Source of the DNA: Magnetovibrio sp. PR-2
GTDB taxonomy: Bacteria; Pseudomonadota; Alphaproteobacteria; Rhodospirillales; Magnetovibrionaceae
Direction of reading: 5' to 3'
NCBI RefSeq assembly: GCF_036689815.1
Contig: NZ_JBAHUR010000005.1
Location: 171,501-235,500, forward strand
Length of the DNA stretch: 64,000 nucleotides
Below the pieces are notes generated by a model. It did no database searches. It was given only the letters and a program-made list of their open reading frames with translations, and was not told the DNA's origin. A program made the translations under genes and the position numbers. Shown piece by piece: positions 5,203-49,679 of this stretch; within the stretch, counting starts at the first letter, position 1; the number at the start of each line of letters is the position of its first letter.

Positions 5203-6384
5203 ATGGCTGACGTCACACTTTCTGCCGCAGTACGCGGTAGCCTTCTCTCGCTGCAAAGCACCACCGATCTTATCGAACGTACCCAAAGCCGTCTGTCGAC
5301 TGGCTTGAAGGTTTCGTCCGCTATTGATGATCCGGTCGCTTTCTTCCAAGCTAAAACACTGACTGACCGTGCGTCTGACTTCACCGAGAAGAAAGACAAC
5401 ATCGACCAAGGCATCAGCTCGCTGTCTGCTGCGGTTGACGGTATCGAAGCTGTTGAAAACTTGGTTAACCAGCTTAAAGGTATTGCGAACTCGATGAAAT
5501 CGGCAACTGGTACCCAGTTCACCGATTTGATCACACAGTTCAATGACTTGCGCTCCCAGATCGATTTGCTCACCACGGATTCTACGTACCAAGGTGTCAA
5601 CTTGATCAACGGTACGGGTCAAACCCTTTCGGTTGAATTCTCCGACAAATCGACTTCCAAATTGTCTGTGTCTTCTGTTGACGTTACGGCCAATGGTATG
5701 GACGTGAATAGCGCAACGAACATCACAGCCCTCGGCACGAACGTGCTGGCAGTGAACCACGCTGACTTTGTCTCCGCTACGACGTTGACGGGTGGCGATA
5801 CGGTTTCATTGACTTATGTCGGTCCAGATGTGACCGTCACGACGGCTGCGAACAAGACCATGACATATGGTACGGCTACTCTTACTCTTGCTATGAGTGC
5901 TGGCGGTTCCGCCACCTTGACGCAGGGTACGACGTATACGGTCACGATCCGTGCAACCACCGCTGCTGGTGGTGGCGCTGCTGCAGGTGTTGTCACCTCG
6001 ACAACGTTCTCTGCACAAATGTCTGGTGCCTCCGCTGGTGGTGCTGGTGCAACCGTGGCTGCTGGTACCGCTGGTAAAACGTATGTTGGTGAAAGCAACT
6101 CGACTTCCATCGATGCTGCGATCACGGATTTGAGCTCAGCTTTGACCACGCTGCGTACCGAAGCTTCTAGCTTGGGTAACAACGTTGCATTGCTGCAAAC
6201 CCGCCTTGAATTCACCGAAGCGTATGTGAGTACCTTGGACGAAGGTGGTTCTAAACTTACCTTGGCCGATATCAACGAAGAAGGTGCAAACCTTCTGGCC
6301 CTGCAAACCCGCCAACAATTGGGTATCCAATCCCTTTCGTTTGCTGGTCAGGCTGAACAATCCGTCTTGGGTCTGTTCCGTTAA
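5203..6384 (+). CDS. fliC: flagellin
   Basis: A 393-residue filament subunit. The N-terminal D0/D1 coiled-coil region has the flagellin pattern (RTQSRLSTGLKVSSAIDDPV, then the NLINGTG segment near residue 140). The C-terminal D0 helix carries LLALQTRQQLGIQSLSFA and ends VLGLFR. The central part (about residues 160-300) is almost entirely Thr, Ser, Ala, Gly and Val and offers many O-glycosylation sites. It is exported through the flagellar type III apparatus with no signal peptide. AAGAGGA lies 9 bases before the ATG. Upstream Maf and GT41-like genes and the neighbouring sugar clusters suggest it is the glycosylation target. Confidence 0.95.
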   Translation: MADVTLSAAVRGSLLSLQSTTDLIERTQSRLSTGLKVSSAIDDPVAFFQAKTLTDRASDFTEKKDNIDQGISSLSAAVDGIEAVENLVNQLKGIANSMKSATGTQFTDLITQFNDLRSQIDLLTTDSTYQGVNLINGTGQTLSVEFSDKSTSKLSVSSVDVTANGMDVNSATNITALGTNVLAVNHADFVSATTLTGGDTVSLTYVGPDVTVTTAANKTMTYGTATLTLAMSAGGSATLTQGTTYTVTIRATTAAGGGAAAGVVTSTTFSAQMSGASAGGAGATVAAGTAGKTYVGESNSTSIDAAITDLSSALTTLRTEASSLGNNVALLQTRLEFTEAYVSTLDEGGSKLTLADINEEGANLLALQTRQQLGIQSLSFAGQAEQSVLGLFR

Positions 6385-6415
6385 TCGCCAATCTAAGCGA
6401 GAACTAAACGAATGG

Positions 6416-6450
6416 AATACCCCCGCAACTTATGTTGCGGGGGTATTTCT
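6416..6450 (+). terminator. flagellin transcription terminator
   Basis: A perfect 14-bp stem (6416-6429 with 6434-6447) with a TTAT loop, followed by a short T-rich tail. It starts 31 bases after the flagellin stop. Confidence 0.9.
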
Positions 6451-6597: not shown

Positions 6598-6747
6598 CGA
6601 AATAGGGTGGTGGGACGGCTGGAATGCCAGCAAATCCATGAGGGCTATTTTTTAGTATTTTTCTTCCAAGGATGTTGAAAATCATAGATTTTTCGTTCGC
6701 GACCCTGGTTGGCGTATGCTAATATGGATTCCAGTATTAATTGACTA

Positions 6748-6973
6748 GGACAGAATGTCTGCAGATGGTTTCATCTGCCTCTTTTCAAAGCCAATGGACT
6801 ATGCCTGTCGGCGTTTGAAAGGGGCTCGTCATCGAAAGTCGGCCGCACTGCGGTGCACGAACGCATCACGTGGCCGGATGGCCTATACCAAAGATGCATG
6901 AGAGACATTTGAATGACGTGAACCATGTTCACACGTTCAAGTGTTCGCGCGCTATCGAGCGACAATTCTGTCC
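6748..6973 (+). ncRNA. candidate branched structured leader RNA upstream of the sugar operon
   Basis: Pairing worked out by hand. The closing helix P1 joins 6748-6756 with 6965-6973 (9 perfect pairs) and continues 6757-6759 with 6961-6963 across one bulged A. Inside are P2, 6761-6767 with 6772-6778 (7 pairs, GTTT loop); P3, 6779-6792 with 6810-6824 (14 pairs, one bulged G, two G-U); P4, 6840-6844 with 6872-6876, enclosing GCAC/GTGC 6845-6848 with 6853-6856; and P5, 6905-6913 with 6936-6944, enclosing 6918-6923 with 6927-6932. The element ends 38 bases before the first operon start codon. It matches no RNA class I recognise. It may be a leader, riboswitch-like element or antitermination RNA, or a free sRNA. 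Confidence 0.55.
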
Positions 6974-7011: not shown

Positions 7012-7599
7012 ATGTCTCATATGCAGAACTACTTTCAACAGGTCAGCCAGATTGCTGAATCCATTGATCTAGCCACCATCGAACAGTTGGTCGATAAGCT
7101 TGTCGCGCTGCGCGCACGGGGTGGACGCCTGTTTGTCCTGGGTGTTGGCGGCAGCGCGGCGAACGCTTCGCATGCGGTGAATGATTTTCGCAAATTATGT
7201 GGGATTGAAACGTATGCTCCGACCGACAATGTGTCGGAGCTGACGGCCCGCACCAACGACGAAGGTTGGGAAACCGTTTTTGCCGGTTGGCTGAAGACCA
7301 GCCGCCTCAATGAGAACGATGGCGTATTTGTTTTTTCCGTCGGCGGTGGAAATGTCGAAAAAAATGTCAGCGTCAATTTGGTGAAAGCCTTGGACGTCGC
7401 TAAGGACGTCAGCGCAATGATTTTGGGCGTTGTCGGACGCGACGGCGGTTACGCCAAGCAATCGGGCGGCGATGGCGTTGTTGTCGTCCCGGTCGTGGAC
7501 GAAAGCCTGGTAACCCCTCATACCGAAGCGTTTCAAGCGGTCGTGTGGCATGGCTTGGTGTCTCACCCCAAATTACAAACGCAAGCGACCAAGTGGTAA
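7012..7599 (+). CDS. SIS-domain phosphosugar isomerase, GmhA-like
   Basis: A 195-residue single SIS domain. VLGVGGSAANASHAVNDF (near residue 45) matches the phosphate-binding loop of phosphoheptose isomerases, and SVGGGN corresponds to the second Ser/Gly loop. GmhA converts sedoheptulose 7-phosphate to D-glycero-D-manno-heptose 7-phosphate. A GmhB-like phosphatase and an HldE-like protein in the same operon support a heptose route. ATG at 7012 is preferred to the in-frame GTG at 6997. It is the first gene of the plus-strand sugar operon, 38 bases after the structured RNA candidate. The exact sugar phosphate is not provable from sequence. Confidence 0.75.
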   Translation: MSHMQNYFQQVSQIAESIDLATIEQLVDKLVALRARGGRLFVLGVGGSAANASHAVNDFRKLCGIETYAPTDNVSELTARTNDEGWETVFAGWLKTSRLNENDGVFVFSVGGGNVEKNVSVNLVKALDVAKDVSAMILGVVGRDGGYAKQSGGDGVVVVPVVDESLVTPHTEAFQAVVWHGLVSHPKLQTQATKW

Positions 7600-7614
7600 A
7601 GGAGCGTTGACAAA

Positions 7615-8208
7615 GTGCCTTTGAAAAGAGCCATATTCCTAGACCGGGACGGTGTGTTGAACCGTACAGACGTGCGGGACGCAAAGCCATACGCCCCAAC
7701 CCGTGTTGAGGATTTTGATATTCTTCCCGATGTGGCAGAGGCTTTGTCATCTTTCAAACGCGCAGGCTTTTTTCTGGTCGTTGTGACTAATCAGCCCGAT
7801 GTCGGTAACGGCAAGGTCGAAAGAGAGACTGTCGAAGCCATGCATCAAAGCCTCATGCGTGATTTGCCCATTGATGCTTTGAAAGTTTGCTACCACAAAC
7901 AATCTGAAGGCTGCCCGTGTCGCAAACCCGAACCCGGTATGTTGCTGGACGCGGCAGAGGAATACGGCATAGATGTTCCCAACAGCTTCATGATTGGGGA
8001 CCGGGCGGGCGACGTTTTGGCCGGTAAATCTGCAGGCTGTCGCACGGTGTTTATCGACTTGGGGTATCGCTCAAGCGAACAAACAACACAAGCCGATATC
8101 ATTACTAATTCTCTCCCAGAAGCGGCAGACAGAATTCTCGCCCTTTTGACCCAGGAAGCGCCAAAGAATCTGCGCGTGGGTGCTGTGGAGATACGAGAGG
8201 TACCATGA
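7615..8208 (+). CDS. gmhB: HAD phosphatase, GmhB-like (heptose bisphosphate phosphatase family)
   Basis: A 197-residue HAD hydrolase. It has the catalytic FLDRDGVLN motif at the N-terminus, VVTNQ as motif II, and MIGDRAGDVLAGKSAGC as motifs III/IV. The segment CYHKQSEGCPCRKPEPGM keeps the Cys/His zinc-loop pattern typical of GmhB. The family removes the C7 phosphate from heptose 1,7-bisphosphate. It starts with GTG and has an AAAGGAG ribosome site 11 bases upstream. Its end overlaps the transaldolase start by 4 bases. Confidence 0.8.
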   Translation: MPLKRAIFLDRDGVLNRTDVRDAKPYAPTRVEDFDILPDVAEALSSFKRAGFFLVVVTNQPDVGNGKVERETVEAMHQSLMRDLPIDALKVCYHKQSEGCPCRKPEPGMLLDAAEEYGIDVPNSFMIGDRAGDVLAGKSAGCRTVFIDLGYRSSEQTTQADIITNSLPEAADRILALLTQEAPKNLRVGAVEIREVP

Positions 8209-8933
8209 CAAAAGTCGATAATCTCAACGTCAAGATTTATGCGGACGGCGCGAACCTGGAAGAAATCAGGGCGTTGGCGCAAAACCCATTGATTGAAGGC
8301 TTTACCACCAATCCCACCTTGATGCGGCGTGCGGGTGTGAGCGACTACGAAACCTTTGCCCGTGATGTGTTGGCAGAGATTACGGATCGTCCGGTGAGTT
8401 TTGAAGTCTTTGCCGATGACAAAGACGGCATGATTGCGCAAGCGCGCACCATCGCGACATGGGGCGAAAACGTCAACGTCAAAATTCCGTTTACCAACAC
8501 CTTGGGCGAATCAATGCTGCCCGCCATTGAGGAGTTATCGAACTCCGGCGTGCAAGTGAATGTGACCGCGATGATGACGGTGGACCACGTTGCCCAAACT
8601 GTGAATGTTCTCAATCCCGACGTGCCGGCAATTGTTTCTGTTTTTGCCGGGCGCATTGCCGATACCGGCATGGACCCCGTGCCGGTCATGCAAGAGGCCG
8701 TGGCCCTTTTATCCGATTGCCCCAAAGCGGAGTTGTTGTGGGCAAGCCCACGCGAACTGTTGAACATCTTTCATGCGGATGACGCAGGCTGTCATATCAT
8801 TACGGTGACCAATGACTTGTTGGCAAAACTGGTGAATGTTGGGAAAGACTTAGATCAGTTCAGCTTGGAAACGGTATTGATGTTCTATCGTGATGCCAGC
8901 GAGGCCGGTTATAGCATTCGCACACAATCATAA
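8205..8933 (+). CDS. transaldolase / fructose-6-phosphate aldolase family protein
   Basis: A 242-residue protein of the short transaldolase (TalC/FSA-like) type. It contains IEGFTTNPTLMRRAGV near residue 30 and VNVKIPFTNT near residue 90, whose Lys is the Schiff-base residue in the family. It transfers or cleaves three-carbon ketose units. In this operon, with transketolase subunits and an SIS isomerase, it could make sedoheptulose 7-phosphate or build a longer sugar chain. It overlaps gmhB by ATGA. Confidence 0.8.
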   Translation: MTKVDNLNVKIYADGANLEEIRALAQNPLIEGFTTNPTLMRRAGVSDYETFARDVLAEITDRPVSFEVFADDKDGMIAQARTIATWGENVNVKIPFTNTLGESMLPAIEELSNSGVQVNVTAMMTVDHVAQTVNVLNPDVPAIVSVFAGRIADTGMDPVPVMQEAVALLSDCPKAELLWASPRELLNIFHADDAGCHIITVTNDLLAKLVNVGKDLDQFSLETVLMFYRDASEAGYSIRTQS

Positions 8934-8953
8934 ACGGATAGGTGAACAAGCGC

Positions 8954-10051
8954 ATGGCGGATCGTTTTCAAATCGACAGTCACAAAATGGCGTACCACCC
9001 CGAACGCACAACCGCGTTGATGGAAGCCGGTGATGATTGGGAGAAGGCAAAATCCATCTACCCGATTTATGTCGAAGTCTCCCCTGTCGGTGCGTGCAAT
9101 CACAGGTGCGTGTTCTGCGCATACGACTACATCGGTTATAAAACAATCCAGCTTGACTATGAGATGCTTGCCGAGCGCCTGCCCGAAATGGGCCGTTTAG
9201 GCGTGAAGAGCATTATGTTCGCCGGCGAAGGTGAGCCGATGCTGCACAAACGCATTGTCGACATTGTCCGGGTGACGAAAGAATCCGGCATCGATGTTTC
9301 GTTTACAACGAACGCGACGGCCATGCCGAAGAACTTCCCGGATGAAGCTTTGCAGCATGTGTCTTGGATCAAGGCGTCCATCAATGCGGGCACGGCCAAA
9401 ACCTATGCCGAGATACACCAAACCAAAGAACATCATTTCGATCTAGCCATTAAAAACCTGAAGGCATTGGTGGAAAAACGAAACGCAAACGGTTGGAATA
9501 CGACATTGGGCGCACAGATTTTGCTATTGCCGGAAAACGCGGGTGAAATCGAACAGCTCGCGAAAATCTGCCGCGATCAGATTGGTCTGGATTATTTGGT
9601 CGTGAAACCCTATTCCCACGTCGAAGCCAGCGAAACCACGCGCTACAAAGATTTGGACTACACCCAGTTTTTAGAACTGGAAGACAGCCTCAAACACCTC
9701 AACACAGATGATTTCAGTTTGGTCTTTCGCGCCAACACCATGCGGCGTTATACGGATGCTGACCGTTATCCGGTTTGTTATTCCGTTCCCTTTATGTGGG
9801 CCCATATCATGGCGTCGGGGGATGTGTTCGGCTGCGGCGCATTTTTGCTGGACCCGCGCTTTAAATATGGGAACATCAAAGAAAACGCTTTCCAAGACAT
9901 TTGGGAAGGCGAAAAACGCCATAAGAATTTCGACTTTGTTCGCCATGAATTGGATATTTCAGAATGTCGGAGGAACTGTCGTATGGATGCTGTGAACAGA
10001 TATTTGTATCAAGTGATCGATCGCAAACCGGATCACGTGAATTTTATTTAA
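8954..10051 (+). CDS. radical SAM/SPASM-type enzyme
   Basis: A 365-residue protein with the radical SAM cluster motif CNHRCVFCAYDY (Cys-x3-Cys-x2-Cys) near residue 50, followed by MFAGEGEPMLHK as the SAM-binding GGE-like segment. The C-terminus has a SPASM-like Cys region (GDVFGCGAF and SECRRNCRMDAVNRY) that would hold an auxiliary iron-sulfur cluster. It would catalyse a radical modification of a substrate; the operon context suggests a sugar nucleotide, not a peptide, but this is inference. ATG at 8954 is chosen over GTG at 8942. It is one of three CxxxCxxC proteins in this operon. Confidence 0.8.
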   Translation: MADRFQIDSHKMAYHPERTTALMEAGDDWEKAKSIYPIYVEVSPVGACNHRCVFCAYDYIGYKTIQLDYEMLAERLPEMGRLGVKSIMFAGEGEPMLHKRIVDIVRVTKESGIDVSFTTNATAMPKNFPDEALQHVSWIKASINAGTAKTYAEIHQTKEHHFDLAIKNLKALVEKRNANGWNTTLGAQILLLPENAGEIEQLAKICRDQIGLDYLVVKPYSHVEASETTRYKDLDYTQFLELEDSLKHLNTDDFSLVFRANTMRRYTDADRYPVCYSVPFMWAHIMASGDVFGCGAFLLDPRFKYGNIKENAFQDIWEGEKRHKNFDFVRHELDISECRRNCRMDAVNRYLYQVIDRKPDHVNFI

Positions 10052-10072
10052 TCTTTTGCAATTGGGTGCGCC

Positions 10073-11095
10073 ATGAGCCAATGGAATCCAAATCATAAAA
10101 AAGTCGCCGTCGTCACAGGCGGGGCCGGTTTTATCGGCAGCCACATGACGGATTTGTTGTTAAGCGAAGGCTATGCGGTGTGTGTCATCGACAGTTTCGT
10201 CGGTGGGCATGAGCGCAACTTAGCGCACCTTTCGGGCAACCCGGACCTGCACATTGAACGCACGGACATTCGGGACCTGGACAGCGCTCATCCCTGTTTT
10301 GTGGGTGCTGAGTTCGTTTTTCATTTTGCTGGCATCGGCGACATTGTGCCCTCTATAGAACAGCCCATCGACTATATGGACGTGAACGTTCAAGGTACAG
10401 TGCGCGTGCTGGAGGCTGCACGGGCTGGGGGGGTGAAGAAGTTTGTCTATGCCGCGTCGTCATCGTGTTACGGTCTGGCCGACACGCCGACGCGTGAAGA
10501 CCATCCCATTGATCCGAAGTATCCTTATGCATTGTCAAAGTATCAAGGCGAACAAGCGGTCTTTCATTGGCACAACGTGTATGACCTCCCGGTCAATTCC
10601 GTTCGGATTTTTAACGCATATGGAACGCGTGTGCGTACGACGGGCGCTTATGGGGCTGTGTTCGGCGTGTTCTTTAAGCAAAAGCTTGCGGACAAACCGT
10701 TCACAGTCGTTGGGGATGGGGAGCAGTCGCGTGACTTCATCTATGTCACGGATGTGGCCAAAGCATTCTATGCAGCAGCGGTTGCGGATGTGAGCGGCGA
10801 GGTCTTTAATCTTGGCGCAGGTGCGCCTCAAACCGTGAACCGCCTGGTCGAATTGTTGGGTGGAGATGTGGTCTATGTCCCCAAACGACCAGGTGAGCCC
10901 GATTGCACATGGGCGGATATCACAAACATAACCGCGAAGCTCGATTGGCAACCGAGCGTCTCTTTTGCCGACGGTGTCGCGATGATGGTGGCTGAGATTG
11001 ACAACTGGAAAGACGCACCCTTGTGGGAGCCCGACAGCATTGCCGTCGCAACCGAAAGCTGGTTCAAATACATGGGGGGAGACAACGCAACATGA
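10073..11095 (+). CDS. NAD-dependent sugar epimerase/dehydratase (extended SDR)
   Basis: A 340-residue extended SDR. It has the NAD-binding motif VVTGGAGFIGSH at the N-terminus, Ser/Thr in VYAASSSCYG and the catalytic pair in YPYALSK, so it looks active. The C-terminal part has the usual substrate-binding pattern (NLGAGAPQTVNRLVELLGG). It probably acts as a 4-epimerase or 4,6-dehydratase on a nucleotide sugar. Its stop overlaps the start of the HldE-like gene as ATGA. Confidence 0.8.
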   Translation: MSQWNPNHKKVAVVTGGAGFIGSHMTDLLLSEGYAVCVIDSFVGGHERNLAHLSGNPDLHIERTDIRDLDSAHPCFVGAEFVFHFAGIGDIVPSIEQPIDYMDVNVQGTVRVLEAARAGGVKKFVYAASSSCYGLADTPTREDHPIDPKYPYALSKYQGEQAVFHWHNVYDLPVNSVRIFNAYGTRVRTTGAYGAVFGVFFKQKLADKPFTVVGDGEQSRDFIYVTDVAKAFYAAAVADVSGEVFNLGAGAPQTVNRLVELLGGDVVYVPKRPGEPDCTWADITNITAKLDWQPSVSFADGVAMMVAEIDNWKDAPLWEPDSIAVATESWFKYMGGDNAT

Positions 11096-12639
11096 CGGAA
11101 GAGTTCTTCGAACAATATGCGCACAAAATCGTAACGCCTGACGATCTGTGTGAACGGTTCGGGCCTTGCCCGCGCGATCAGCGCGTGATCATGTGTCACG
11201 GTGTGTTTGATGTTGTCCACCCCGGTCACGTCCGTCACTTGGCCTATGCCAAAAGCAAAGCCGATGTGTTGGTGGTCAGCATTACGGCAGACAAGCACAT
11301 CACCAAAGGGGCTTATCGTCCTCACGTTCCCGAACAACTGCGCGCACACAATTTGGCTGCGTTTGAAATGGTCGATTTTGTTTTGATCGATCAAAATGCA
11401 AAGCCGCTTGAAAATATTCGAAAACTTCAACCCGATCTATTCGCCAAAGGTTTTGAGTACACCAACACCGGATTGCCCCCGGAAACCCAAGAAGAAACCG
11501 ATGCTGTGGAAAGCTATGGCGGTGAGATGATCTTCACGCCGGGCGATATTGTCTATTCTTCGTCGCGTATCATTGATGCAGAACTGCCGAACATCGGTAT
11601 TGAGAAGCTGTTGACGATGATGAAAGAGGGCGACTTCGGTTTTGACGATTTGCGCGAAGCCGTGAGCAACCTGCAAGGCAAGCGCGTTCACGTTGTTGGC
11701 GACACGATTGTCGACAGTTATACGCGATCCAATTTAATCGGTGGGCAAACCAAAACGCCGACGTTTAGCGTCTTGTTCGAAGGGCGCGATGACTACATCG
11801 GTGGGGCAGGCATTGTGGCCCAACACCTACGCGCAGCCGGAGCCGATGTGGTCTTCTCAACCGTGTTGGGTGACGATGAATTTAAGGACTTCGTCCTCGA
11901 CGGCTTGCGCGATGCGGGGGTCGAGTGCAAGGCTATTATCGACAAGACACGCCCGACGACCAATAAAAATGCAATTATTGCAAGTGGTTATCGTCTGTTA
12001 AAGATCGATACTCTGGACAACAGTAGCATTTCAAAAACCCTTATTGGCAAGCTTGTGAAACAAATTTCCGAAACGCCCGCCGATGCGGTTGTGTTCAGTG
12101 ATTTCCGTCACGGGATCTACAACGCCCTGTCCGTGCCGACGTTGACGCAAGCCATTCCAGACAACGTTTACCGTGTTGCTGATAGTCAAGTGGCTAGCCG
12201 TTGGGGTAACATCACGGAATTTCTTGGTTTTGATCTGATCACGCCGAACGAACGCGAGGCGCGGTTCTCTTTGGCGGATCAAGATTCCACCGTGCGCAAC
12301 CTGTCGCTCAAACTGATGGCAAAAACCGACTGCAATACGGTCTTTTTAAAGCTCGGCAGCCGCGGTGTATTTGTGTCCTACATGGATGAAGATAAAGGCG
12401 AGTGCTTCATTGCCATCGACAGTTTTGCCGGAAACGTTGTTGATGCGGTCGGAGCTGGCGATGCCATGCTGGCGTATTCGACGTTATGCATGATGACGAC
12501 GGGCTCTCCGTTCATCTCATCCATTGTTGGCAGCATGGCCGCAGCGTGTGAATGTGAATACGATGGCAACATTCCCATTCGCCCCGAAGACGTCTTGCGC
12601 AAAATCGACACTGTTGAAAAACTGGCGAATTATTCATGA
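11092..12639 (+). CDS. bifunctional HldE-like protein with domain order reversed (cytidylyltransferase then PfkB kinase)
   Basis: A 515-residue fusion. Residues about 30-170 form a nucleotidyltransferase with GVFDVVHPGHVRHL, whose HxGH motif binds nucleotide. Residues about 195-510 form a PfkB sugar kinase with VVGDTIVDSY, the GGAGIVAQHL glycine segment, TPNERE and the catalytic DAVGAGDA. Canonical HldE has the kinase first and the nucleotidyltransferase second. The pair would phosphorylate C1 of a heptose 7-phosphate-like sugar and, after GmhB acts, activate it with a nucleotide. The start is set by the ATGA overlap with the previous gene. It overlaps the next gene by 4 bases. Confidence 0.85.
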   Translation: MTEEFFEQYAHKIVTPDDLCERFGPCPRDQRVIMCHGVFDVVHPGHVRHLAYAKSKADVLVVSITADKHITKGAYRPHVPEQLRAHNLAAFEMVDFVLIDQNAKPLENIRKLQPDLFAKGFEYTNTGLPPETQEETDAVESYGGEMIFTPGDIVYSSSRIIDAELPNIGIEKLLTMMKEGDFGFDDLREAVSNLQGKRVHVVGDTIVDSYTRSNLIGGQTKTPTFSVLFEGRDDYIGGAGIVAQHLRAAGADVVFSTVLGDDEFKDFVLDGLRDAGVECKAIIDKTRPTTNKNAIIASGYRLLKIDTLDNSSISKTLIGKLVKQISETPADAVVFSDFRHGIYNALSVPTLTQAIPDNVYRVADSQVASRWGNITEFLGFDLITPNEREARFSLADQDSTVRNLSLKLMAKTDCNTVFLKLGSRGVFVSYMDEDKGECFIAIDSFAGNVVDAVGAGDAMLAYSTLCMMTTGSPFISSIVGSMAAACECEYDGNIPIRPEDVLRKIDTVEKLANYS

Positions 12640-13598
12640 GCAATTCCATGCGGATCATCATTGCTGGATTGGGTGTGCAAGGGCACAAACGTCGTGCTGT
12701 GGCTGGGACGGATTGTGTCGCCATTGTTGACCCCGTTCACGAAGATGCCGACTTTCGCACTGTAGAAGATGTTCCACTGGACAGTTATGACGCTTGTTTG
12801 GTTTGTACGCCCGATGAAGCCAAGGTTGATCTGCTGACTTATCTGTTGAACAACGCCAAGCATGTGATGGTGGAAAAGCCGTTGCTCACCCATGACGACA
12901 AAACTCTCACCACGTTGCAGGGCTTGGCCAGCGACAACGCTGTGGTTTGTTACACAGCCTACAACCACCGCTTTGAGCCGCACTTCATGGCCATGAAGGA
13001 TCTCATAGATAGTGGAGAGTTGGGCGAGATTTATTCCGTTCGCATGTTCTACGGAAATGGAACGGCGCGTTTGGTTCGTGACAGCGTTTGGCGCGATCAG
13101 GCTGCGGGCGTGTTGCCGGACTTGGGCTCACACCTTTTGGACACGTTGCGCTATTGGCTGGGGGACGATTTTGACCAGACGTTTGAAACGCGCGGGGCGT
13201 TTTGCCACGAAAACAAATCTTTCGACCACGTGATCATCGGTTCCAACGCGGGCCCGGTTGTTCAGTTGGAAGCCAGTATGCTGAGTTGGCGCAACCACTT
13301 CACGTGTGATGTGTTGGCTGAAAAGGGCAGCGCACATATTGAATCGTTGTGCAAATGGGGGCCCAGTACCTTTATCCATCGCACGCGTATTTTGCCCGCA
13401 GGCCGTCCGCCGGAAAGCTCGACAACCTTGGTGAAAGATGATCCCACCTGGGAATTGGAATACGATCACTTTAAAAATCTGTGTGTGTCTGGAGGCACAG
13501 GCAATCTGGAAAATGATTTGTGGCTGAACAAAACGCTGCGTGAGTTGGCTCAGCAAGTGGGTGTTTCTTCTGTCTTGCCAAAGGACGTGCCGTCATGA
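12636..13598 (+). CDS. Gfo/Idh/MocA-family NAD(P)-dependent sugar oxidoreductase
   Basis: A 320-residue protein with an N-terminal Rossmann motif (IIIAGLGVQGHKR), the family's catalytic-lysine motif in MVEKPLLTH near residue 90, and DLGSHLLDTLRYWLG in the C-terminal substrate domain. Members oxidise or reduce a hydroxyl of a sugar or sugar nucleotide. It could make the keto group that a DegT aminotransferase then converts to an amine. It overlaps both neighbours by 4 bases. Confidence 0.8.
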   Translation: MSNSMRIIIAGLGVQGHKRRAVAGTDCVAIVDPVHEDADFRTVEDVPLDSYDACLVCTPDEAKVDLLTYLLNNAKHVMVEKPLLTHDDKTLTTLQGLASDNAVVCYTAYNHRFEPHFMAMKDLIDSGELGEIYSVRMFYGNGTARLVRDSVWRDQAAGVLPDLGSHLLDTLRYWLGDDFDQTFETRGAFCHENKSFDHVIIGSNAGPVVQLEASMLSWRNHFTCDVLAEKGSAHIESLCKWGPSTFIHRTRILPAGRPPESSTTLVKDDPTWELEYDHFKNLCVSGGTGNLENDLWLNKTLRELAQQVGVSSVLPKDVPS

Positions 13599-14863
13599 AC
13601 CAGCCTGTCATCGGATACTGCGGTATGACGCATCTGGGTCTGAATTCTGCCGTGGCCTCAGCAGCACATGGTTTTGAGACTTACGGCTTCGATTTGGATG
13701 GCGCGTTGGTCGATGCCATCGCCGCAGGGGACTTGCCGGTGGTGGAACCTGGTCTGGACGATCTGTTTGCCAAGCACCGCGATCACTTGACCTTTACGTC
13801 ACGGGCCGAAGATTTGGCCCACTGCGATGTGGTCTATGTTGCACCCGATGTGCCGACGGATGATGCCGGCCAAAGCGATTTGTCTGGGATTGAGACGTTG
13901 TTGTCTATTGTTGAGCCGCAGGTGCGTGACGACGCGGTGCTGGTCGTGCTGTCCCAAGTGAACCCGGGCTTTACCCGTTCCCATGCCCGCCCAGCGGGAC
14001 CGCTGTATTATCAAGTTGAGACCCTGATCTTTGGCCGAGCCGTTGAACGGGCCTTGTATCCGGAGCGCTTCATTGTTGGCTGTGCTAACCCCGATGAACC
14101 TTTGGCGGAGGCGTTGGAAACTTATCTAAAAGCGTTCGACTGCCCGGTTCTGCCCATGCGTTATGAGAGTGCCGAGCTGGCGAAAATTTCCATTAACATG
14201 TGTTTGGTGGCTTCCGTCACCGTGGCCAACACCATGGCGGAGATTTGTGAATCCATCGGTGCCGATTGGTCGGAAATCATCCCGTCCTTGCGGCTGGACA
14301 AGCGTATTGGTGAGTACAGTTACATCGTTCCGGGCTTAGGCATATCGGGTGGAAATTTAGAGCGAGACTTGGCGTCAGTCATTCGTATGGCCGATAGCCA
14401 CGGGACGGACGCAGGTGTCGTGCGGGCTTGGCTCACGAACAGCACGCACCGCAAAAATTGGCCCATGCGGACGTTGCAAAAAGAGGTTCTGGACGACCAG
14501 CCGGATGCAACCGTCGCCGTGATTGGCTTGGCGTATAAAGAAAACACGCACAGCACCAAAAACTCACCGGCCCTTGTTTTGTTGGATCAGTTAAAAGACC
14601 GCAGCGTGAAGGTCTATGACCCGGTTGTGCCGCCCTCTGCCGGGGGTGAGCATGCTCAAGGGGCAGACAGTGCTTTGGCCGCAGCTGCGGGTGCCGACGT
14701 TGTTGTGTTGATGACTCCGTGGCCGGAATTTCGCGATATTGACCCCGTCGCACTTGCCAACGCGATGGCTGGGAAAACGGTTATAGATCCGTATGGATTG
14801 CTGGATGGTGATGCCTTGGCTGGTGCTCAAATGAAACACCATAAACTTGGCGTTGCAGGTTAG
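13595..14863 (+). CDS. UDP-glucose/GDP-mannose dehydrogenase homologue lacking the catalytic cysteine
   Basis: A 422-residue protein with the three family regions: an N-terminal NAD domain (GYCGMTHLGL), a central domain with SAELAKISINMCL, and a C-terminal UDP-binding domain (VIGLAYKENTHSTKNSP). In active UDP-sugar 6-dehydrogenases the loop reads G-G-S-C-F-P-K-D. Here residues 252-258 read GGNLERD, putting Asn254 at the cysteine position. The conserved Lys and Asn of AELAKISIN (about 197 and 201) remain. Four-electron oxidation to a uronate is therefore unlikely. It may stop at a keto or aldehyde stage or do other redox work. Confidence 0.75.
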   Translation: MNQPVIGYCGMTHLGLNSAVASAAHGFETYGFDLDGALVDAIAAGDLPVVEPGLDDLFAKHRDHLTFTSRAEDLAHCDVVYVAPDVPTDDAGQSDLSGIETLLSIVEPQVRDDAVLVVLSQVNPGFTRSHARPAGPLYYQVETLIFGRAVERALYPERFIVGCANPDEPLAEALETYLKAFDCPVLPMRYESAELAKISINMCLVASVTVANTMAEICESIGADWSEIIPSLRLDKRIGEYSYIVPGLGISGGNLERDLASVIRMADSHGTDAGVVRAWLTNSTHRKNWPMRTLQKEVLDDQPDATVAVIGLAYKENTHSTKNSPALVLLDQLKDRSVKVYDPVVPPSAGGEHAQGADSALAAAAGADVVVLMTPWPEFRDIDPVALANAMAGKTVIDPYGLLDGDALAGAQMKHHKLGVAG

Positions 14864-14880
14864 GGAAGAAGGCGAAACAC

Positions 14881-15768
14881 ATGCTGGAACATTTAAATGC
14901 TCACCCCCAAAACCCCGAGCGCGTCGTGATCCTTGGCGCGAAGGGGTTTGTGGGTTCTGCGACGGCAGATGTCTTGGCCAAAGACGGGGTCGAGGTCTTA
15001 GCCCTTGGTCGCCAAGAGCTTGATTTGCTGGGGGGCGAAGCCGCGCGTGATTTGGCAAATGTCTTAAAGCCGAGCGACAGCGTTGTTGTGATCTCTGCCC
15101 AAGCTCCGGTGAAAAACAACGCCATGTTGGAAAGCAACATCGCGATGATGAGCAACGTCTGTGCAGCCTTTGATCAGGTTGAACCGGCGCATATGGTGTA
15201 TGTCAGTTCCGATGCGGTGTATGCCGACAGCATGGAGCCGTTAGACGAACGTTCATGTGCGGAGCCGGGCTCGCTTCACGGGATTATGCATATTGCGCGC
15301 GAAACCATGTTGGCTAATGCTTACAGTGGGCCATTGGGAATACTTCGCCCGACACTCATCTATGGTGAAAGCGATCCCCATAACGGATACGGTCCGAACC
15401 GTTTTCGGCGCTTGGCCGCAGAGGGTGAGGATATCGTGTTGTTTGGAGAAGGCGAAGAACAGCGCGATCACGTCTTGATTGATGATGTCGCAGACTTAAT
15501 CGTGCGCATGTTAAAATCCAAAAGCCACGGTAAATTGAATGCCGCCACCGGTACGGTCATATCGTTCCGCCATATCGCTTTGGCTGTTGTGGCGCAATTC
15601 TCTGATCCCGTGGACATTAAAGGGTCGCCGCGTGTTGGTGAAATGCCGCACAATGGCTACCGCGCCTTTAATCCAGCAGCAACGAAAGCGGCTTTCCCAG
15701 ATTTTTCCTATACGGACATTCAAACCGGCTTGTCACAGGTGCACGCACAAATGATGGAGAAACTCTAA
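14881..15768 (+). CDS. SDR-family nucleotide-sugar protein with altered active site
   Basis: A 295-residue extended SDR fold with an intact NAD motif (VVILGAKGFVGSATADVL) and the conserved VYVSSDAVY strand. Where the YxxxK catalytic pair is expected the sequence reads HGIMH (His133 to His137), followed by the usual helix and Glu. Both catalytic residues thus appear to be replaced by His. It may be a reductase or epimerase with unusual chemistry or a non-catalytic partner. The stop TAA shares its last base with the next gene's ATG (15768). Confidence 0.7.
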   Translation: MLEHLNAHPQNPERVVILGAKGFVGSATADVLAKDGVEVLALGRQELDLLGGEAARDLANVLKPSDSVVVISAQAPVKNNAMLESNIAMMSNVCAAFDQVEPAHMVYVSSDAVYADSMEPLDERSCAEPGSLHGIMHIARETMLANAYSGPLGILRPTLIYGESDPHNGYGPNRFRRLAAEGEDIVLFGEGEEQRDHVLIDDVADLIVRMLKSKSHGKLNAATGTVISFRHIALAVVAQFSDPVDIKGSPRVGEMPHNGYRAFNPAATKAAFPDFSYTDIQTGLSQVHAQMMEKL

Positions 15769-16418
15769 TGCGCGAAGTTGATCTTCTTCGGGGCTTGCCC
15801 AAAGGCAAACGCAATGTCAAAGCGCGTGAAACGGCCAAGACCGACGAGCACATCCGTGTGTCGCGCGAATACGGTGAAACTTATTTCGACGGACCGCGTG
15901 AGTATGGTTACGGCGGTTATCGTTACGACGGGCGTTGGCGTCCGGTGGCACAGGACATGGTCGATCACTTCGGCCTGAAACCGGGCGATAAGTTTTTGGA
16001 CGTGGGTTGTGCAAAAGGTTTTTTGGTTAAAGACCTTTTGGAATTGGGCGTCGACGCATATGGTTTGGATATCTCGCACTATGCCATGATGAATTGTGAA
16101 CCTGAAGTCGTTGGTCGTTTGCACATCGGCAGTGCGGAAAGCCTGCCGTTCCCGGATAACAGTTTTGATGCGGTTGTGTCCATCAATACGGTTCACAATT
16201 TGGAACGTGATCTGTGTGTGCAGGCCGTGAAGGAAATTGAACGCCTAGCGCCCGGCAAAGGTTTCATCCAGGTCGACAGTTATAAGACGCCTGAACAAAA
16301 AGAGATTTTTGAAAGCTGGGTTTTGACGGCTCACTTTTACGATTACCCCGAAGGTTGGCTGAAACTCTATGAAGAGGCTGGCTATACGGGGGATTATAAC
16401 TGGACCATTATCAACTGA
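15768..16418 (+). CDS. class I SAM-dependent methyltransferase
   Basis: A 216-residue methyltransferase. Motif I is FLDVGCAKGFLVKDLL (near residue 68), with VDAYGLDIS as the acidic second strand and FDAVVSINTVHNLERD as motif II. The N-terminal 55 residues include a Gly/Tyr-rich stretch (REYGYGGYRYDGRW). Likely substrate is a sugar hydroxyl or carboxyl, from context only. It is coupled to the preceding SDR gene by a TAATG overlap. Confidence 0.75.
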   Translation: MREVDLLRGLPKGKRNVKARETAKTDEHIRVSREYGETYFDGPREYGYGGYRYDGRWRPVAQDMVDHFGLKPGDKFLDVGCAKGFLVKDLLELGVDAYGLDISHYAMMNCEPEVVGRLHIGSAESLPFPDNSFDAVVSINTVHNLERDLCVQAVKEIERLAPGKGFIQVDSYKTPEQKEIFESWVLTAHFYDYPEGWLKLYEEAGYTGDYNWTIIN

Positions 16419-16439
16419 CCGGGGGAAGAGGAGAGAATT

Positions 16440-17264
16440 GTGTCCAACACGTCGTTCGACAACACAGAGGCCCGAAAACGGTGTTTGAAATACCGTCGCC
16501 GTTTGCTTGATATCTCTCAACAAGTCAGCGCCCTACACGGTGGCGCGGCGCTGTCGGCCATGGAAATGGTTGATTGTCTCTATCACGGATTGATGCGCGA
16601 CCCGGCTGGCGCGAATTCACCCGATACCTTCGTCATGTCCAAGGGCCATGGCTGTATGGTGCAGTACATTATCTTGGAAGAAATGGGTGTCTTGTCGCGC
16701 GAAGACCTTGATCTTTATTGCAAGGCCGATGGGCGACTTGGTTGTCATCCTGATTACGGAAATCCAGGGATCGAAGCGTCTACCGGGTCTTTAGGTCATG
16801 GTATGGGGCTGACCGTCGGCATGGCGTATACGGAAAAATTCGTCAAAAAGACTGACGGAAACGTTTTTGTGGTTGTCAGCGATGGCGAGTTTCAAGAGGG
16901 ATCGACCTGGGAATGCATGATGATGGCGGCCAATTTGGGTGTTGATAATCTGATTGCGTGCTTGGATCACAACGGCTTTCAATCGTTTGGCCGGACCTCT
17001 GAAACGCATCCTCAGTTTTACCCGATCCGCGAAAAGGTCGAAGCTTTTGGTTGGGAATGTGCAGAAGTCAACGGCCACGACGCGGCTGCTGTGGTTGATG
17101 CCATTCAATCCAGAAAAGGCGGCAAGCCGTTCCTGTTGGTGGGCAACACCGTTAAAGGCAAGGGCGTGTCGTTTATGGAGAATATACCCATCTGGCACTA
17201 TCGCTCTCCCAATCCGGAAGAATATCAGCAAGCCATTGATGAGCTGCAGGAGGTGTCATCATGA
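16440..17264 (+). CDS. transketolase-like N-terminal (TPP-binding) subunit
   Basis: A 274-residue protein equal to the first domain of transketolase. It carries SKGHGCMVQY, TGSLGHGMGLTVGMAYTEKF and the TPP/Mg motif VVSDGEFQEGSTWECMMMAA ending in a conserved Asn (LDHN). Starts with GTG after a GGAAGAGGAG ribosome site. It overlaps the C-terminal subunit by 4 bases. Split transketolases in sugar clusters move a two-carbon ketol unit, either to make sedoheptulose 7-phosphate or to extend or branch a special sugar. Confidence 0.85.
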   Translation: MSNTSFDNTEARKRCLKYRRRLLDISQQVSALHGGAALSAMEMVDCLYHGLMRDPAGANSPDTFVMSKGHGCMVQYIILEEMGVLSREDLDLYCKADGRLGCHPDYGNPGIEASTGSLGHGMGLTVGMAYTEKFVKKTDGNVFVVVSDGEFQEGSTWECMMMAANLGVDNLIACLDHNGFQSFGRTSETHPQFYPIREKVEAFGWECAEVNGHDAAAVVDAIQSRKGGKPFLLVGNTVKGKGVSFMENIPIWHYRSPNPEEYQQAIDELQEVSS

Positions 17265-18175
17265 GAAACAAGTTTGCCGATGTGATTTACGAAATTGGAC
17301 AAAAAGACGACAGCATTTGCGCGTTGGTCGCCGACATTTCCCCTGCGGGGTCCATGGTCAATTTTCGCGAAGACTTTCCCGAACGCTTCATCAACTGCGG
17401 TGTTGCCGAACAGTCGATGATCGGTATCGCGGCGGGCATGGCGTTGAAAGGCATGCGTCCGTTTTGCTACACCATTGCGACGTTTAGCCTCTATCGTCCG
17501 TTTGAGATGATCCGTGTCGATCTGGCTTATCAAAATTTGCCGGTCACGGTGATTGGCATGGGGGCAGGTGTGATCTATTCCACACTGGGCAGCACGCACC
17601 ATTCCATGGAAGACATCGCCGTTGCGACGGCGGTTCCCAACATGACGGTTATAGCACCGTGTGATCCGGATGAAATGCGCCAAGCCACACTGTGGTGCGC
17701 GACCCAAAGCCAAGGCCCGGTCTATATGCGTCTGGGCAAAGCCGGTGAACCGGACTTGACCGAACATGCGATTGACGATTTCGAAGTTGGTAAAATCCGA
17801 TACATTCGCAAGGGTAAAGACGTCGCAATCCTGACTTACGGTCCCATCACCGCAATGGCTTGTGAGATTGCGGATCGGCTGGAAGCGCAAGGCAAAAGCG
17901 TTTCGCTTGTTTCTTGTCACACCATCAAACCGCTGGATGAAGACGGTGTGTGTGGTGTGCTTACATCTCACGATCACGTGGCGGTTATAGAAGAGCATGT
18001 CCCCCATGGCGGCCTGACGTCTCGGGTCAAAGAATTGGCGTGGGAAAACAAAGTTGGTTGTCAGTTGTCAGCTTGGACGTTGAAGGACGAATTCATTCAC
18101 TGTTACGGCACTTACGAAGAACTGTTGGCCGCGCACGGTATTGAGAAAGAGGCGATCATCGCTGCCCTGAGTTAG
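17261..18175 (+). CDS. transketolase-like C-terminal subunit
   Basis: A 304-residue protein with the pyrimidine-binding domain (FINCGVAEQSMIGIAAGMAL, with the catalytic Glu) and the C-terminal domain (KDVAILTYGPITAMACEIAD). Together with the preceding gene it forms a complete two-subunit transketolase-like enzyme. It starts at the ATGA overlap. It lies between a methyltransferase and a DegT aminotransferase, so it is dedicated to the sugar pathway rather than central metabolism. Confidence 0.85.
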   Translation: MRNKFADVIYEIGQKDDSICALVADISPAGSMVNFREDFPERFINCGVAEQSMIGIAAGMALKGMRPFCYTIATFSLYRPFEMIRVDLAYQNLPVTVIGMGAGVIYSTLGSTHHSMEDIAVATAVPNMTVIAPCDPDEMRQATLWCATQSQGPVYMRLGKAGEPDLTEHAIDDFEVGKIRYIRKGKDVAILTYGPITAMACEIADRLEAQGKSVSLVSCHTIKPLDEDGVCGVLTSHDHVAVIEEHVPHGGLTSRVKELAWENKVGCQLSAWTLKDEFIHCYGTYEELLAAHGIEKEAIIAALS

Positions 18176-18184
18176 AAGGAAAAC

Positions 18185-19426
18185 ATGACGGACGTAGCTG
18201 ATAGAAAATTGGCGATTTTGGGTGGAGAGCCGATGCGGGCAACTCCCATGCCGCCGCGTTTTGCGCTGGGAGCGGCGGAGGAAGCTATGATCCAAGACGT
18301 TTTGGCTCATTACCGTGCGCGCGATCTCGATCCCGGATATCAGGGCCATTTCGAACAGCTCTATTGCGACGCGTTTGTCGACTTTCAGGGCGGTGGTTAC
18401 GCCGATTCCGTTGCCACAGGTACAGCAGCTATCTTCGTTGGCTTGGCTGCGCTCGAGCTTCCCAAAGGTTCAGAGGTGTTGGTTTCACCCATCACCGATC
18501 CCGGCACCTTGTCGGCCATCGTGCTAAATGGATTAAAACCGCGTTTGGTGGATGCCAAACCCAACAGCTATAACGTTGGCCCAGACGAATTCGAAGCCGC
18601 CATCACGCCCGCGTGTTCCGCTGGCGTGATTGTTCACGCTGTGGGTCAGGCAGTTGAAATTGACGGGGTCGTCGACGTGGCGCAGCGTCATGGCATCAAG
18701 GTGTTGGAAGATTGCTCTCAAGCTCATGGTGCTGGGTGGAAGGGACAACGGGTTGGCACGTTTGGCGACATTGCCGCGTTTTCGACCATGTACCGCAAAG
18801 CCCACATGAGTGGCGCTTCGGGTGGGATGATTTATACGCAAGACTTAGACTTACACCGCATGGCTCTCGCCCATGCCGACCGGGGCAAGCCCACGTGGCA
18901 AGAAGACCTAGATGATCGCAATCCCAGTCAATTTTTGTTTCCTGCATTGAACCTGCATTCGGATGAAATCTCTTGTGCCATGGGCTTGGCCTCATTGCAG
19001 CGCTTAGAGACGACGATTGAGAAACGGCTGGATTTTGTCGCGCGCTTTACACAGCGTCTGGAAGAAACATCCCACGTGTGCCGCCCTTATGGCTACACCA
19101 AAGGGGATTCTCCTTTTATCTATCCCGTTTTTGTGGACCCATCAAAGATTTCTTGTACCGTGGAAGCGTTCGCCAACGCCGTACGTGCCGAAGGCATTGG
19201 GCTTAATCCGCACTATGAATACTTGGTTGCCAATTGGCCGTTTTTAAAACCGCATATGGCCGAAGAGACGGACACCCCCAATGCCCGCACTATGCTGGAC
19301 ACCAGCTTTGCGCTGTATCTCAATGAGAATTATGGAGAAGCAGAAGTGGAAGACTGCATCGCGGCAATTAGCAAAGTTGAAGGTCATTATCAGTCTGGCG
19401 ACAATGCAACCGATCGTCTGGAGTAA
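18185..19426 (+). CDS. DegT/DnrJ/EryC1/StrS PLP-dependent sugar aminotransferase (first copy)
   Basis: A 413-residue fold-type I aminotransferase. VATGTAAIFVGLAAL is the cofactor-pocket motif, VLEDCSQAHGAGWKGQRVG the PLP ring-stacking region, and the Lys in FSTMYRKAHMSGASGGMI the Schiff-base residue. It would convert a ketosugar nucleotide to an aminosugar. Its N-terminus (ILGGEPMRATPMPP) resembles AHBA-synthase and scyllo-inosose aminotransferase members. It is distinct in sequence from the second DegT protein at 21244. Confidence 0.85.
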   Translation: MTDVADRKLAILGGEPMRATPMPPRFALGAAEEAMIQDVLAHYRARDLDPGYQGHFEQLYCDAFVDFQGGGYADSVATGTAAIFVGLAALELPKGSEVLVSPITDPGTLSAIVLNGLKPRLVDAKPNSYNVGPDEFEAAITPACSAGVIVHAVGQAVEIDGVVDVAQRHGIKVLEDCSQAHGAGWKGQRVGTFGDIAAFSTMYRKAHMSGASGGMIYTQDLDLHRMALAHADRGKPTWQEDLDDRNPSQFLFPALNLHSDEISCAMGLASLQRLETTIEKRLDFVARFTQRLEETSHVCRPYGYTKGDSPFIYPVFVDPSKISCTVEAFANAVRAEGIGLNPHYEYLVANWPFLKPHMAEETDTPNARTMLDTSFALYLNENYGEAEVEDCIAAISKVEGHYQSGDNATDRLE

Positions 19427-19435
19427 GGCTAGAGA

Positions 19436-20191
19436 ATGCACATTGGCATCGTGACATATCAAACGGGACACAAGAAGACACTGGATGTTATCCGGCGCTT
19501 CTTGCCGAAAGGGTATGAGATCACCGTTCTCGCGTTTCCGTTCCAAAAACGCCCACATGTGGTGACGTCTTATGAAGACCGTCCGTATCAAATTTTGGAT
19601 ATGGATATGGAGGCGTTTTGTGAGACCTATAACATAAACTATATCCGCGTTTCTGGATGGGATGAGGCCAGCATTCAAACTATGCAAGTCCTGGCCGTGC
19701 CCGATGTTTTTGTGACGTGCATCGCAAAAATAATCCCGCAGCATCTTTTAAGATTGGGGCCGTTTGTCAACGCTCACCCTGGTCTGTTGCCCCACAACCG
19801 GGGGGTTGATGCCTTTAAATGGGCCCTGTTTCACAAATGGCCGCTTGGCGTTACTCTGCACGTTATTGATCGCGAAATCGACCGCGGTACAATCTTAAAA
19901 CGTGCCAGGGTTCCAATATATAACAACGACACCTTAAAAGACGTTTGCATGCGTTCTTATGAGTTGGAGTGTGATTTAATCGGGGATATCGAACGCTATC
20001 TCCCCTTTTATCAAAAAGGTTGGGGGGTAACGGATGACTATCCACTGAGCCGCAAATCCGTTTCAGCTGAATTTGATAGCGATATTGAGAATTATTTCGT
20101 CGAAAACAGAGAAATCTTTATGAATTTGTCTGTAGACTTAACCGCACAGGCCCATGAATCAGATGGTGTGATAGATGAAACAACACGCTGA
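19436..20191 (+). CDS. folate-dependent formyltransferase (sugar N-formyltransferase candidate)
   Basis: A 251-residue protein with a formyl_trans_N core. The catalytic triad is visible as Asn and His in FVNAHPGLLPHNRGVDAF (near residue 110) and Asp in VTLHVIDREIDRG. Fmt, PurN and sugar N-formyltransferases share this core; no tRNA-binding domain is present, and DegT genes lie on both sides, so N-formylation of an aminosugar is most likely. The last 17 bases overlap the next radical SAM gene. Confidence 0.75.
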   Translation: MHIGIVTYQTGHKKTLDVIRRFLPKGYEITVLAFPFQKRPHVVTSYEDRPYQILDMDMEAFCETYNINYIRVSGWDEASIQTMQVLAVPDVFVTCIAKIIPQHLLRLGPFVNAHPGLLPHNRGVDAFKWALFHKWPLGVTLHVIDREIDRGTILKRARVPIYNNDTLKDVCMRSYELECDLIGDIERYLPFYQKGWGVTDDYPLSRKSVSAEFDSDIENYFVENREIFMNLSVDLTAQAHESDGVIDETTR

Positions 20192-21224: not shown

Positions 21225-21243
21225 AAGACGTGGACGTGATGGT

Positions 21244-22434: not shown

Positions 22435-22447
22435 GGGCTTCGACGGC

Positions 22448-23458: not shown

Positions 23459-23533
23459 CGACTTACATATATTATTGAGATTTCGACAAGCCTGATTGAA
23501 AATAGATAGAACAGTTGAAACTGGGACGACACA

Positions 23534-24721: not shown

Positions 24722-24748
24722 GCAATCATTAGAATATATGGTGCGGCT

Positions 24749-25465: not shown

Positions 25466-25480
25466 GTTTTTGAGGATACA

Positions 25481-49675: not shown

Positions 49676-49679
49676 GTGT

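What the first reader, a model, noticed from the sequence alone, without database searches (positions are those of the whole stretch)
6748..6973. Unassigned branched RNA element ahead of a 20-kb sugar operon
Over 226 bases, five helices pair compatibly: a 12-bp closing helix with one bulge, a 7-bp stem with tetraloop, a 14-bp stem with one bulge, a two-tier stem and a 9+6 bp stem. Chance would rarely give a closing helix of that length around several perfect internal stems. The element stops 38 bases before the first gene of a 20-gene operon. Long glycan operons elsewhere use leader elements for processive antitermination (ops/RfaH, the EAR element), so this could be an alphaproteobacterial counterpart; a ligand-sensing leader or a free sRNA are alternatives. 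The pairings are seen; the function is inference.
Basis: partly seen in the sequence, partly recalled or inferred. Interest (0 to 1): 0.85.

Follow-up and report, generated by a model that had tools for sequence, protein, structure and literature searches.

The report
Orphan folded RNA before glycan operon
A 226-base stretch just ahead of a 20-gene sugar operon can fold into an unusually stable branched RNA, but no relative of it was found in the genomes searched, so it is a credible yet unproven leader RNA whose job is unknown.

Summary
The fold is there as described. 6748-6973 folds at -94.5 kcal/mol (z -4.67, 0 of 200 shuffles). A blind local-fold scan of the window returns it at 6748-6974 (z -5.79). 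Of five + strand loci at z <= -5 and >= 150 nt, it alone is not built round a terminator or one long hairpin. The shape alone is not rare: a >= 12-bp closing helix round >= 4 branches appears in 160 of 1500 shuffles of the intergenic region; with E <= -90 it appears in 3. The fold modestly prefers the operon's strand (z -5.79 versus -4.91).

It is an orphan: single-copy, no BLAST relative in 317 genomes of the order, and no convincing covariance-model relative in those, in a 385-genome class sample or at 86 loci carrying the first gene. No Rfam family matches. Pair conservation could not be tested.

Best reading: a lineage-specific cis-acting leader of the glycan operon. Antitermination is unsupported: no ops-like site lies in the leader, although an RfaH-like NusG paralogue is encoded elsewhere. 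Mobile-element and inverton readings are weaker.

The parts
6748..6973 (+). whole branched element: closing helix round four solid branches and a weak fifth (6947-6960)
   Evidence: MFE -94.5, z -4.67; local optimum of a blind window scan at 6748-6974, z -5.79; fifth branch p 0.33-0.40
6748..6759 (+). 5' arm of the closing helix P1 (GGACAGAATGTC)
   Evidence: pairs with 6961-6973 (one bulged base at 6964); pair probabilities 0.85-1.0 except 0.51 beside the bulge
6961..6973 (+). 3' arm of the closing helix P1 (GACAATTCTGTCC)
   Evidence: as above
6761..6778 (+). P2: 7-bp perfect stem with tetraloop
   Evidence: z -5.7 alone, stem chosen after the fact; p 0.94-0.99
6779..6824 (+). P3: 14-bp stem with one bulge and a weak 4-bp tip; two U-G pairs near its base
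   Evidence: (z -3.1)
6825..6902 (+). P4: two-tier stem
   Evidence: z -2.1, the weakest of the large stems; base p about 0.72
6904..6945 (+). P5: long stem of 12+6 bp
   Evidence: z -4.1 for 6903-6944; core p about 1.0
6755..6901 (+). 48-codon open frame starting inside P1, AGGA 4 bases ahead of its ATG; possible leader peptide, no relatives established
   Evidence: no Pfam match; one insignificant PHROG match, E 0.15; no plasmid match at E <= 1; only weak matches in the order
6414..6449 (+). intrinsic terminator of the upstream flagellin gene; separates the element from upstream transcription
   Evidence: 16 pairs, then T-rich tail; strongest local fold of the window (6397-6465)
7012..26755 (+). 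20-gene glycan operon: SIS isomerase, HAD phosphatase, transaldolase, radical SAM/SPASM, epimerase, HldE-like kinase/nucleotidyltransferase, further sugar enzymes, methyltransferases, aminotransferases
   Evidence: ORFs; Pfam; NCBIfam for six of them (five with matches)
5203..6384 (+). flagellin gene upstream, preceded by a Maf-type glycosyltransferase gene (3076-5007)

Best explanation
The element is the structured 5' part of the untranslated leader of the 20-gene glycan operon: an RNA transcribed on the operon's strand from a promoter between the flagellin terminator (6449) and about 6735. Shown: the fold, its statistical excess, a modest strand preference, its place 38 bases before the first gene, and the absence of detectable relatives in the sets searched. 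Inferred: transcription and function. Most likely mechanism (inference): the closed multi-helix fold keeps about 260-280 bases of untranslated leader compact. That would deny Rho and RNase E an unstructured landing site until RNA polymerase reaches the first gene, and so favour full-length, stable transcripts. A dedicated ligand or protein need not be involved. It is young or fast-changing, since it was not found in the five other genomes of the genus.
For: Energy excess. Blind recovery at the same coordinates, and the one locus among the five strongest long + strand folds that is not built round a terminator or one long hairpin. Strand: 11 G-U pairs in the + optimum against 4 in the - optimum; local z -5.79 on + against -4.91 on -; mirrored on the other strand the + optimum falls from -94.5 to -61.8, the - optimum only from -86.4 to -69.0. 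A strong terminator separates it from the flagellin gene. Energy is spread over several stems. The scan's one terminator-like call inside is P2 with CTCTTTTC after it, followed by further stems, so it is not simply a terminator.
Against: No homologue in 317 order genomes by BLAST or by covariance model, in the 385-genome class sample or at the 86 loci, so no covariation. The same-genus orthologue of the first gene (G005) has an unstructured leader (z +1.7 over 164 nt, +1.2 over 226), though its gene order differs. No consensus sigma-70 promoter was found in 6380-7100. The - strand also folds beyond chance (z -4.57), so the strand preference is modest. Natural sequence here folds somewhat better than shuffles anyway: 283 window tiles average z -0.53, and 3 of them reach z -4.67 or lower, all over the terminator regions; a coding stretch at 61912-62051 reaches z -5.52 over 140 nt (-4.08 over 157 nt). 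A 48-codon frame with a fair ribosome site starts in P1, which would open the fold if translated.
Confidence: 0.35

Rival explanations
1. Processive-antitermination leader: the RNA (or a sequence in it) loads a NusG paralogue or other factor on RNA polymerase so that it reads through the 20-kb operon.
For: Position before a 20-gene glycan operon; the genome carries a second NusG-family protein whose best model is RfaH (127.6 bits, below that model's cut-off of 144.5), next to a gene that looks by eye like a mannose-1-phosphate guanylyltransferase.
Against: No ops-like site within 2 mismatches in 6385-7011. E. coli RfaH is recruited by a short DNA hairpin (PMC7593976, passages), not by a 226-nt RNA. 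[quoted passage not shown] The paralogue is on another contig, and the element is not repeated in the genome.
Confidence: 0.12
2. Ligand-sensing leader (riboswitch) or attenuation leader with a short peptide (48-codon frame 6755-6901).
For: Large multi-helix junction; open frame with AGGA 4 bases ahead of ATG.
Against: Over the element no Rfam class even at E <= 10 except dauA at 19 bits against a gathering score of 45. No terminator called between element and gene, and no clear ribosome-site switch: the best anti-SD match, 6995-7002, is largely paired in a small separate helix. No conserved core, whereas riboswitches are usually widely conserved (general knowledge).
Confidence: 0.12
3. Free small RNA or other non-coding transcript that merely lies there.
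For: A closed fold of 226 nt with a neat closing helix would suit a free RNA.
Against: No terminator called directly after it; only 38 bases to the start codon; no relatives found.
Confidence: 0.12
4. DNA-level feature: relic of a mobile element with 12-bp terminal inverted repeats, or an invertible promoter segment.
For: Inverted repeats of 9 perfect plus 3 bp enclose about 200 bp ahead of a surface-glycan operon. The 12-mer with <= 1 mismatch has 27 matches in the genome against 5 for the pattern read backwards, an excess not explained here.
Against: Single copy. Of the 26 other matches of the 12-mer, the 8 examined all lie in open frames of over 100 codons with no exact 9-base inverted partner in the 1.1-1.5 kb fetched around each; 18 were not examined. 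No target-site duplication seen by eye. No such pair in viral contigs. The interior folds beyond chance without the closing repeats (z -3.6 to -3.8). Modest strand preference.
Confidence: 0.12
5. Chance: a non-functional intergenic stretch that happens to fold well, noticed because it was looked for.
For: No conservation found; the shape alone occurs in 160 of 1500 shuffles; natural tiles of this window are shifted to negative z.
Against: Energy at this level in 1 of 1500 (E <= -95.4) or, with the shape, 3 of 1500 (E <= -90) shuffles of the region; the best z of one shuffled 64-kb window, + strand, is -5.37 against -5.79 here.
Confidence: 0.17

Closest known systems
ops element / RfaH (Enterobacteria; RfaH-like proteins also in Alphaproteobacteria, PMC7593976, passages)
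   Same: Acts at the start of long glycan operons (recalled); this genome has an RfaH-like paralogue.
   Different: ops is a short DNA signal; none was found in the leader. The structure here is a large RNA fold.
EAR (eps-associated RNA, Bacillus)
   Same: RNA sequence linked to a long exopolysaccharide operon; processive antitermination (PMC7858274, passage; its being large and structured is recalled).
   Different: EAR lies between genes 2 and 3 of its operon; no Rfam family matches here.
Riboswitch and leader classes of Rfam 15
   Same: Multi-helix junction in a presumed 5' leader.
   Different: No match of 4227 families at gathering score in the window, none convincing over the element at E <= 10.
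Invertible promoters ahead of capsule operons (Bacteroides fragilis PSA, named in an abstract start listed)
   Same: Inverted repeats enclosing about 200 bp ahead of a surface-glycan operon.
   Different: The interior is itself richly paired; no promoter or recombinase was shown. Orientation not tested, no reads held.

Membership tests
RfaH/ops processive antitermination | ops sequence (GGCGGTAGCNT, recalled consensus) in the leader | tested here: not met
   no match with <= 2 mismatches in 6385-7011
RfaH/ops processive antitermination | RfaH-like NusG paralogue in the genome | tested here: inconclusive
   L141: best NCBIfam model is RfaH, 127.6 bits, but below that model's cut-off of 144.5
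RfaH/ops processive antitermination | anti-polar effect on distal genes | not testable with these tools
   needs expression data
EAR | match to an Rfam covariance model | tested here: not met
   no Rfam family at gathering score; none convincing at E <= 10
Conserved structured RNA (riboswitch or ncRNA class) | homologues that keep the pairing by compensatory changes | tested here: inconclusive
   no homologue found, so covariation cannot be counted
MITE / insertion-sequence relic | several copies or a parent element with the same terminal repeats | tested here: not met
   single copy; 8 of the 26 other matches to the 12-mer examined, all in open frames without inverted partner; the other 18 were not examined
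Invertible promoter | both orientations present in a population | not testable with these tools
   no reads held
Intrinsic terminator cluster | G+C-rich hairpin followed by a run of T | tested here: not met
   only P2 is called, followed by CTCTTTTC and then by further stems

The most novel reading that the evidence does not exclude
A new, sequence-variable but shape-kept class of large branched leader RNA ahead of glycan genes in this order. A second species of the order (G016) has a different-sequence fold of 162 nt (10-bp closing helix, five hairpins, z -6.5, ending 46 bases before its copy of the first gene). If real, these leaders would be held by shape alone and be invisible to sequence and covariance searches.
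Probability: 0.05. Interest if true: 0.75.

Novelty: new member of a known kind. Interest (0 to 1): 0.35.

Why it matters
If transcribed and functional, it would be an unassigned large leader RNA controlling a flagellin-linked glycan operon, and an example of a structured leader restricted to one species, the kind that comparative RNA discovery misses by design. It also gives a concrete candidate with which to ask what the RfaH-like NusG paralogues of such bacteria act on. Without transcript or relatives it stays a candidate.

Tried and rejected
Rfam at gathering score and at E <= 10: nothing over the element but dauA at 19 bits against 45. BLAST: own genome single copy (8 other pieces spanning 15-26 query bases), 6 genus genomes including own (only pieces of 16-21 bases), 18 of the family including own, 317 of the order including own (two candidates a genome scored), plasmids, phages: no relative. 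Covariance model R1: self only among 87 sources (six others at 7.8-12.9 bits). At E <= 1, 9 of the 316 other order genomes had 15-18.3 bits. At E <= 0.1, 2 of the other genomes in the 385-genome class set had 17.5-18.2 bits; both genome runs used the stricter filters that lose weak matches. Of these 11 weak matches, 9 lie in stop-free frames of over 300 codons; for L118 and L120 the test was not valid because those loci are cut by contig ends. I take all 11 as chance.

Upstream folds were examined for 71 of the 80 plus 7 others including the window's own (78 in all). Nine of the 80 were left out, most for short upstream sequence, though three of them had over 400 bases. At z <= -5.7: 3 of 78, namely own, L076 (by eye a terminator behind an upstream gene) and L020 (branched), against 0 of 183 control stretches from inside the same loci; at z <= -5, 4 of 78 against 1 of 183. 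Those controls are probably mostly coding, so this is not a fair intergenic control. Means and medians of the two sets hardly differ (-2.65 and -2.36 against -2.53 and -2.41), so a structured leader is not a general feature of this gene.

One search printed three order loci (L016, L017, L019) in the wrong orientation; this was put right. The 48-codon frame searched in 317 genomes gave 57 genomes at E <= 0.1 including own. About 32 would be expected from the E-value alone; the next best E is 0.003, and several matches run through stop codons, so I take it as noise, though the excess is not explained. One search timed out and was redone smaller. Searches were made to check the statement that the other strong folds are terminators: three of the four loci hold a called terminator, the one at 49.6 kb does not but is one long hairpin (25-31 pairs in its best folds). 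Literature: searches listed no paper whose title or abstract start describes such an element (one search listed 8 of 19,722 and 8 of 14); these six searches do not prove absence. I saw passages of PMC7593976 and PMC7858274, and only listings with abstract starts of the rest.

Full report
WHAT IS THERE. The MFE is -94.5 kcal/mol; 200 dinucleotide shuffles average -69.3 and none folds as well. A blind local-fold scan of all 64 kb returns this element with almost the same ends (6748-6974, z -5.79). On the + strand, five separate loci reach z <= -5 over at least 150 nt. Three of the other four (6.3-6.6 kb behind the flagellin gene, 44.9-45.1 kb, 51.9-52.4 kb) hold called terminators. The fourth (49.6-49.8 kb) is one long hairpin at a gene end, not called as a terminator. 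This element has no single dominant hairpin, and its energy is spread over P1, P2, P3 and P5, with P4 contributing least (the single stems were chosen after the fact, so their own z values flatter). In 40 kb of the same genome around the NusG paralogue and 19.9 kb of a sister species, both strands, the longest fold among the listed non-overlapping best ones is 168 nt at z -4.4; a longer fold overlapping a better short one would not have been listed.

HOW UNUSUAL. Three cautions. The shape, a closing helix of 12 or more pairs round four or more branches, appears in 160 of 1500 shuffles of the intergenic region 6450-7011; only the shape together with an energy at or below -90 is rare (3 of 1500). 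Natural sequence of this window folds better than shuffles on average (mean z -0.53 over 283 tiles, 3 of them at or below -4.67, over the terminator regions). And a coding stretch at 61912-62051 also reaches z -5.52 over 140 nt. The fair statement is: rare by energy, not by topology.

STRAND. Inverted repeats in DNA would fold about equally on both strands. Here the + fold uses 11 G-U pairs, the - optimum 4. Mirrored on the other strand, the + optimum falls from -94.5 to -61.8 and the - optimum from -86.4 to -69.0. Local z is -5.79 on + and -4.91 on -; the tool's test gives -4.67 and -4.57. This favours an RNA of the operon's strand, but only modestly.

SURROUNDINGS. Upstream lie a Maf-type glycosyltransferase gene and a flagellin gene ended by a strong terminator at 6414-6449. 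Downstream, 38 bases on, begin 20 same-strand genes to 26755: SIS isomerase, HAD phosphatase, transaldolase, radical SAM/SPASM, epimerase, an HldE-like fusion, sugar oxidoreductases, split transketolase, aminotransferases, a formyltransferase-like protein and methyltransferases; the last has no Pfam match. The order SIS-HAD-transaldolase-epimerase-HldE is complete on one strand in 26 of the 80 relatives fetched; many others are cut short or differ. No consensus sigma-70 promoter was found in 6380-7100. By eye there is an extended -10-like TGCTAATAT at 6717-6725, without a good -35; this is weak.

RELATIVES. None found. Own genome: one copy. BLAST: 0 of the 316 other order genomes, 17 of which are of the family and 5 of those of the genus; no plasmid, no phage record. 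A covariance model built in effect from this one sequence finds only itself among 87 sources. It finds nothing above 18.3 bits in 316 other order genomes at E <= 1, and nothing above 18.2 bits in the other genomes of a 385-genome class set at E <= 0.1, against 273.5 bits for itself. Rfam has no family for it. The closest orthologue of the first gene among the genomes, in a genus member (G005), has a leader that folds less well than chance (z +1.7), but its operon is only partly the same. So the decisive test for a functional structure, covariation, could not be made. No metagenome collection was searched.

WHAT IT MAY DO. Commitment: a lineage-specific cis-acting leader, confidence 0.35, working most likely by keeping a long untranslated leader compact against Rho and RNase E (inference). 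For it: the genome has a second NusG-family gene whose best NCBIfam model is RfaH, below that model's own cut-off. Against it: that gene lies on another contig, beside what looks by eye like a mannose-1-phosphate guanylyltransferase gene; no ops-like site is in the leader; and the element is not shared with other operons of the genome. A riboswitch is possible but has no conserved core to show. A 48-codon frame starts inside P1 with AGGA ahead; if translated it would disrupt the fold, which is a real argument against a simple closed leader, or for an attenuation-type leader. The mobile-element reading fails on copy number and on the 8 of 26 other matches of the terminal 12-mer that were examined; the excess of 12-mer matches over the reversed control (27 against 5) is not explained. 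The inverton reading cannot be excluded without reads, but it does not explain the internal stems (interior alone z -3.6 to -3.8).

MOST NOVEL READING NOT EXCLUDED. In one other species of the order (G016) the stretch ahead of its copy of the first gene also folds into a branched, closed element (162 nt, z -6.5), again better on the gene's strand (-53.5 against -40.6; z -6.5 against -5.1), with unrelated sequence and no Rfam match at E <= 1. Against it: its first 55 bases, with the 5' closing arm and the first hairpin, lie inside the end of the upstream open frame; the intergenic part alone has z -4.5; its family has no second genome held; the genes behind it are not the same operon; and upstream stretches of the 78 loci as a whole are no more structured than controls. 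Two cases do not make a class. On checking, the larger overlap with the upstream frame made me lower the probability from 0.06 to 0.05, and the more modest strand preference and the unconfirmed terminator at 49.6 kb lowered interest from 0.36 to 0.35.

VERDICT. Observation confirmed; function unproven; antitermination not supported; orphan candidate leader RNA. Interest 0.35.

Noticed in passing
L141 1495-1995 (matched part G000:C6:36333-36617): Second NusG-family protein of the genome, best model RfaH but under its cut-off; by eye it sits beside a winged-helix-type regulator gene and a mannose-1-phosphate guanylyltransferase-like gene (neighbours not searched).
   Followed up: partly
L020 / L163 6335-6496 (G016): Branched 162-nt fold (z -6.5) ahead of the orthologous SIS gene in another family of the order; sequence unrelated, first 55 bases inside the upstream open frame.
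   Followed up: partly
window 5203-6384 and L132 (G000:C12:52110-53285): Two flagellin genes 94% identical in protein; the stretch behind the second copy shows no similarity to the window behind the first.
   Followed up: no
window 6755-6901: 48-codon open frame with AGGA four bases ahead of its ATG, starting within the closing helix.
   Followed up: partly
window 8942-10051, 20175-21224, 22448-23458: Three radical SAM/SPASM proteins inside one glycan operon, plus a B12-binding radical SAM protein on the opposite strand at 26786-28555.
   Followed up: no
window 25481-26755: Last gene of the operon (424 aa) has no Pfam or NCBIfam match.
   Followed up: no
window 16440-18175: Transketolase split into two adjacent genes within the glycan operon.
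   Followed up: no
window 49553-49814: Very strong long hairpin at the end of a - strand gene (z -7.0), not called as a terminator by the consensus scan.
   Followed up: no
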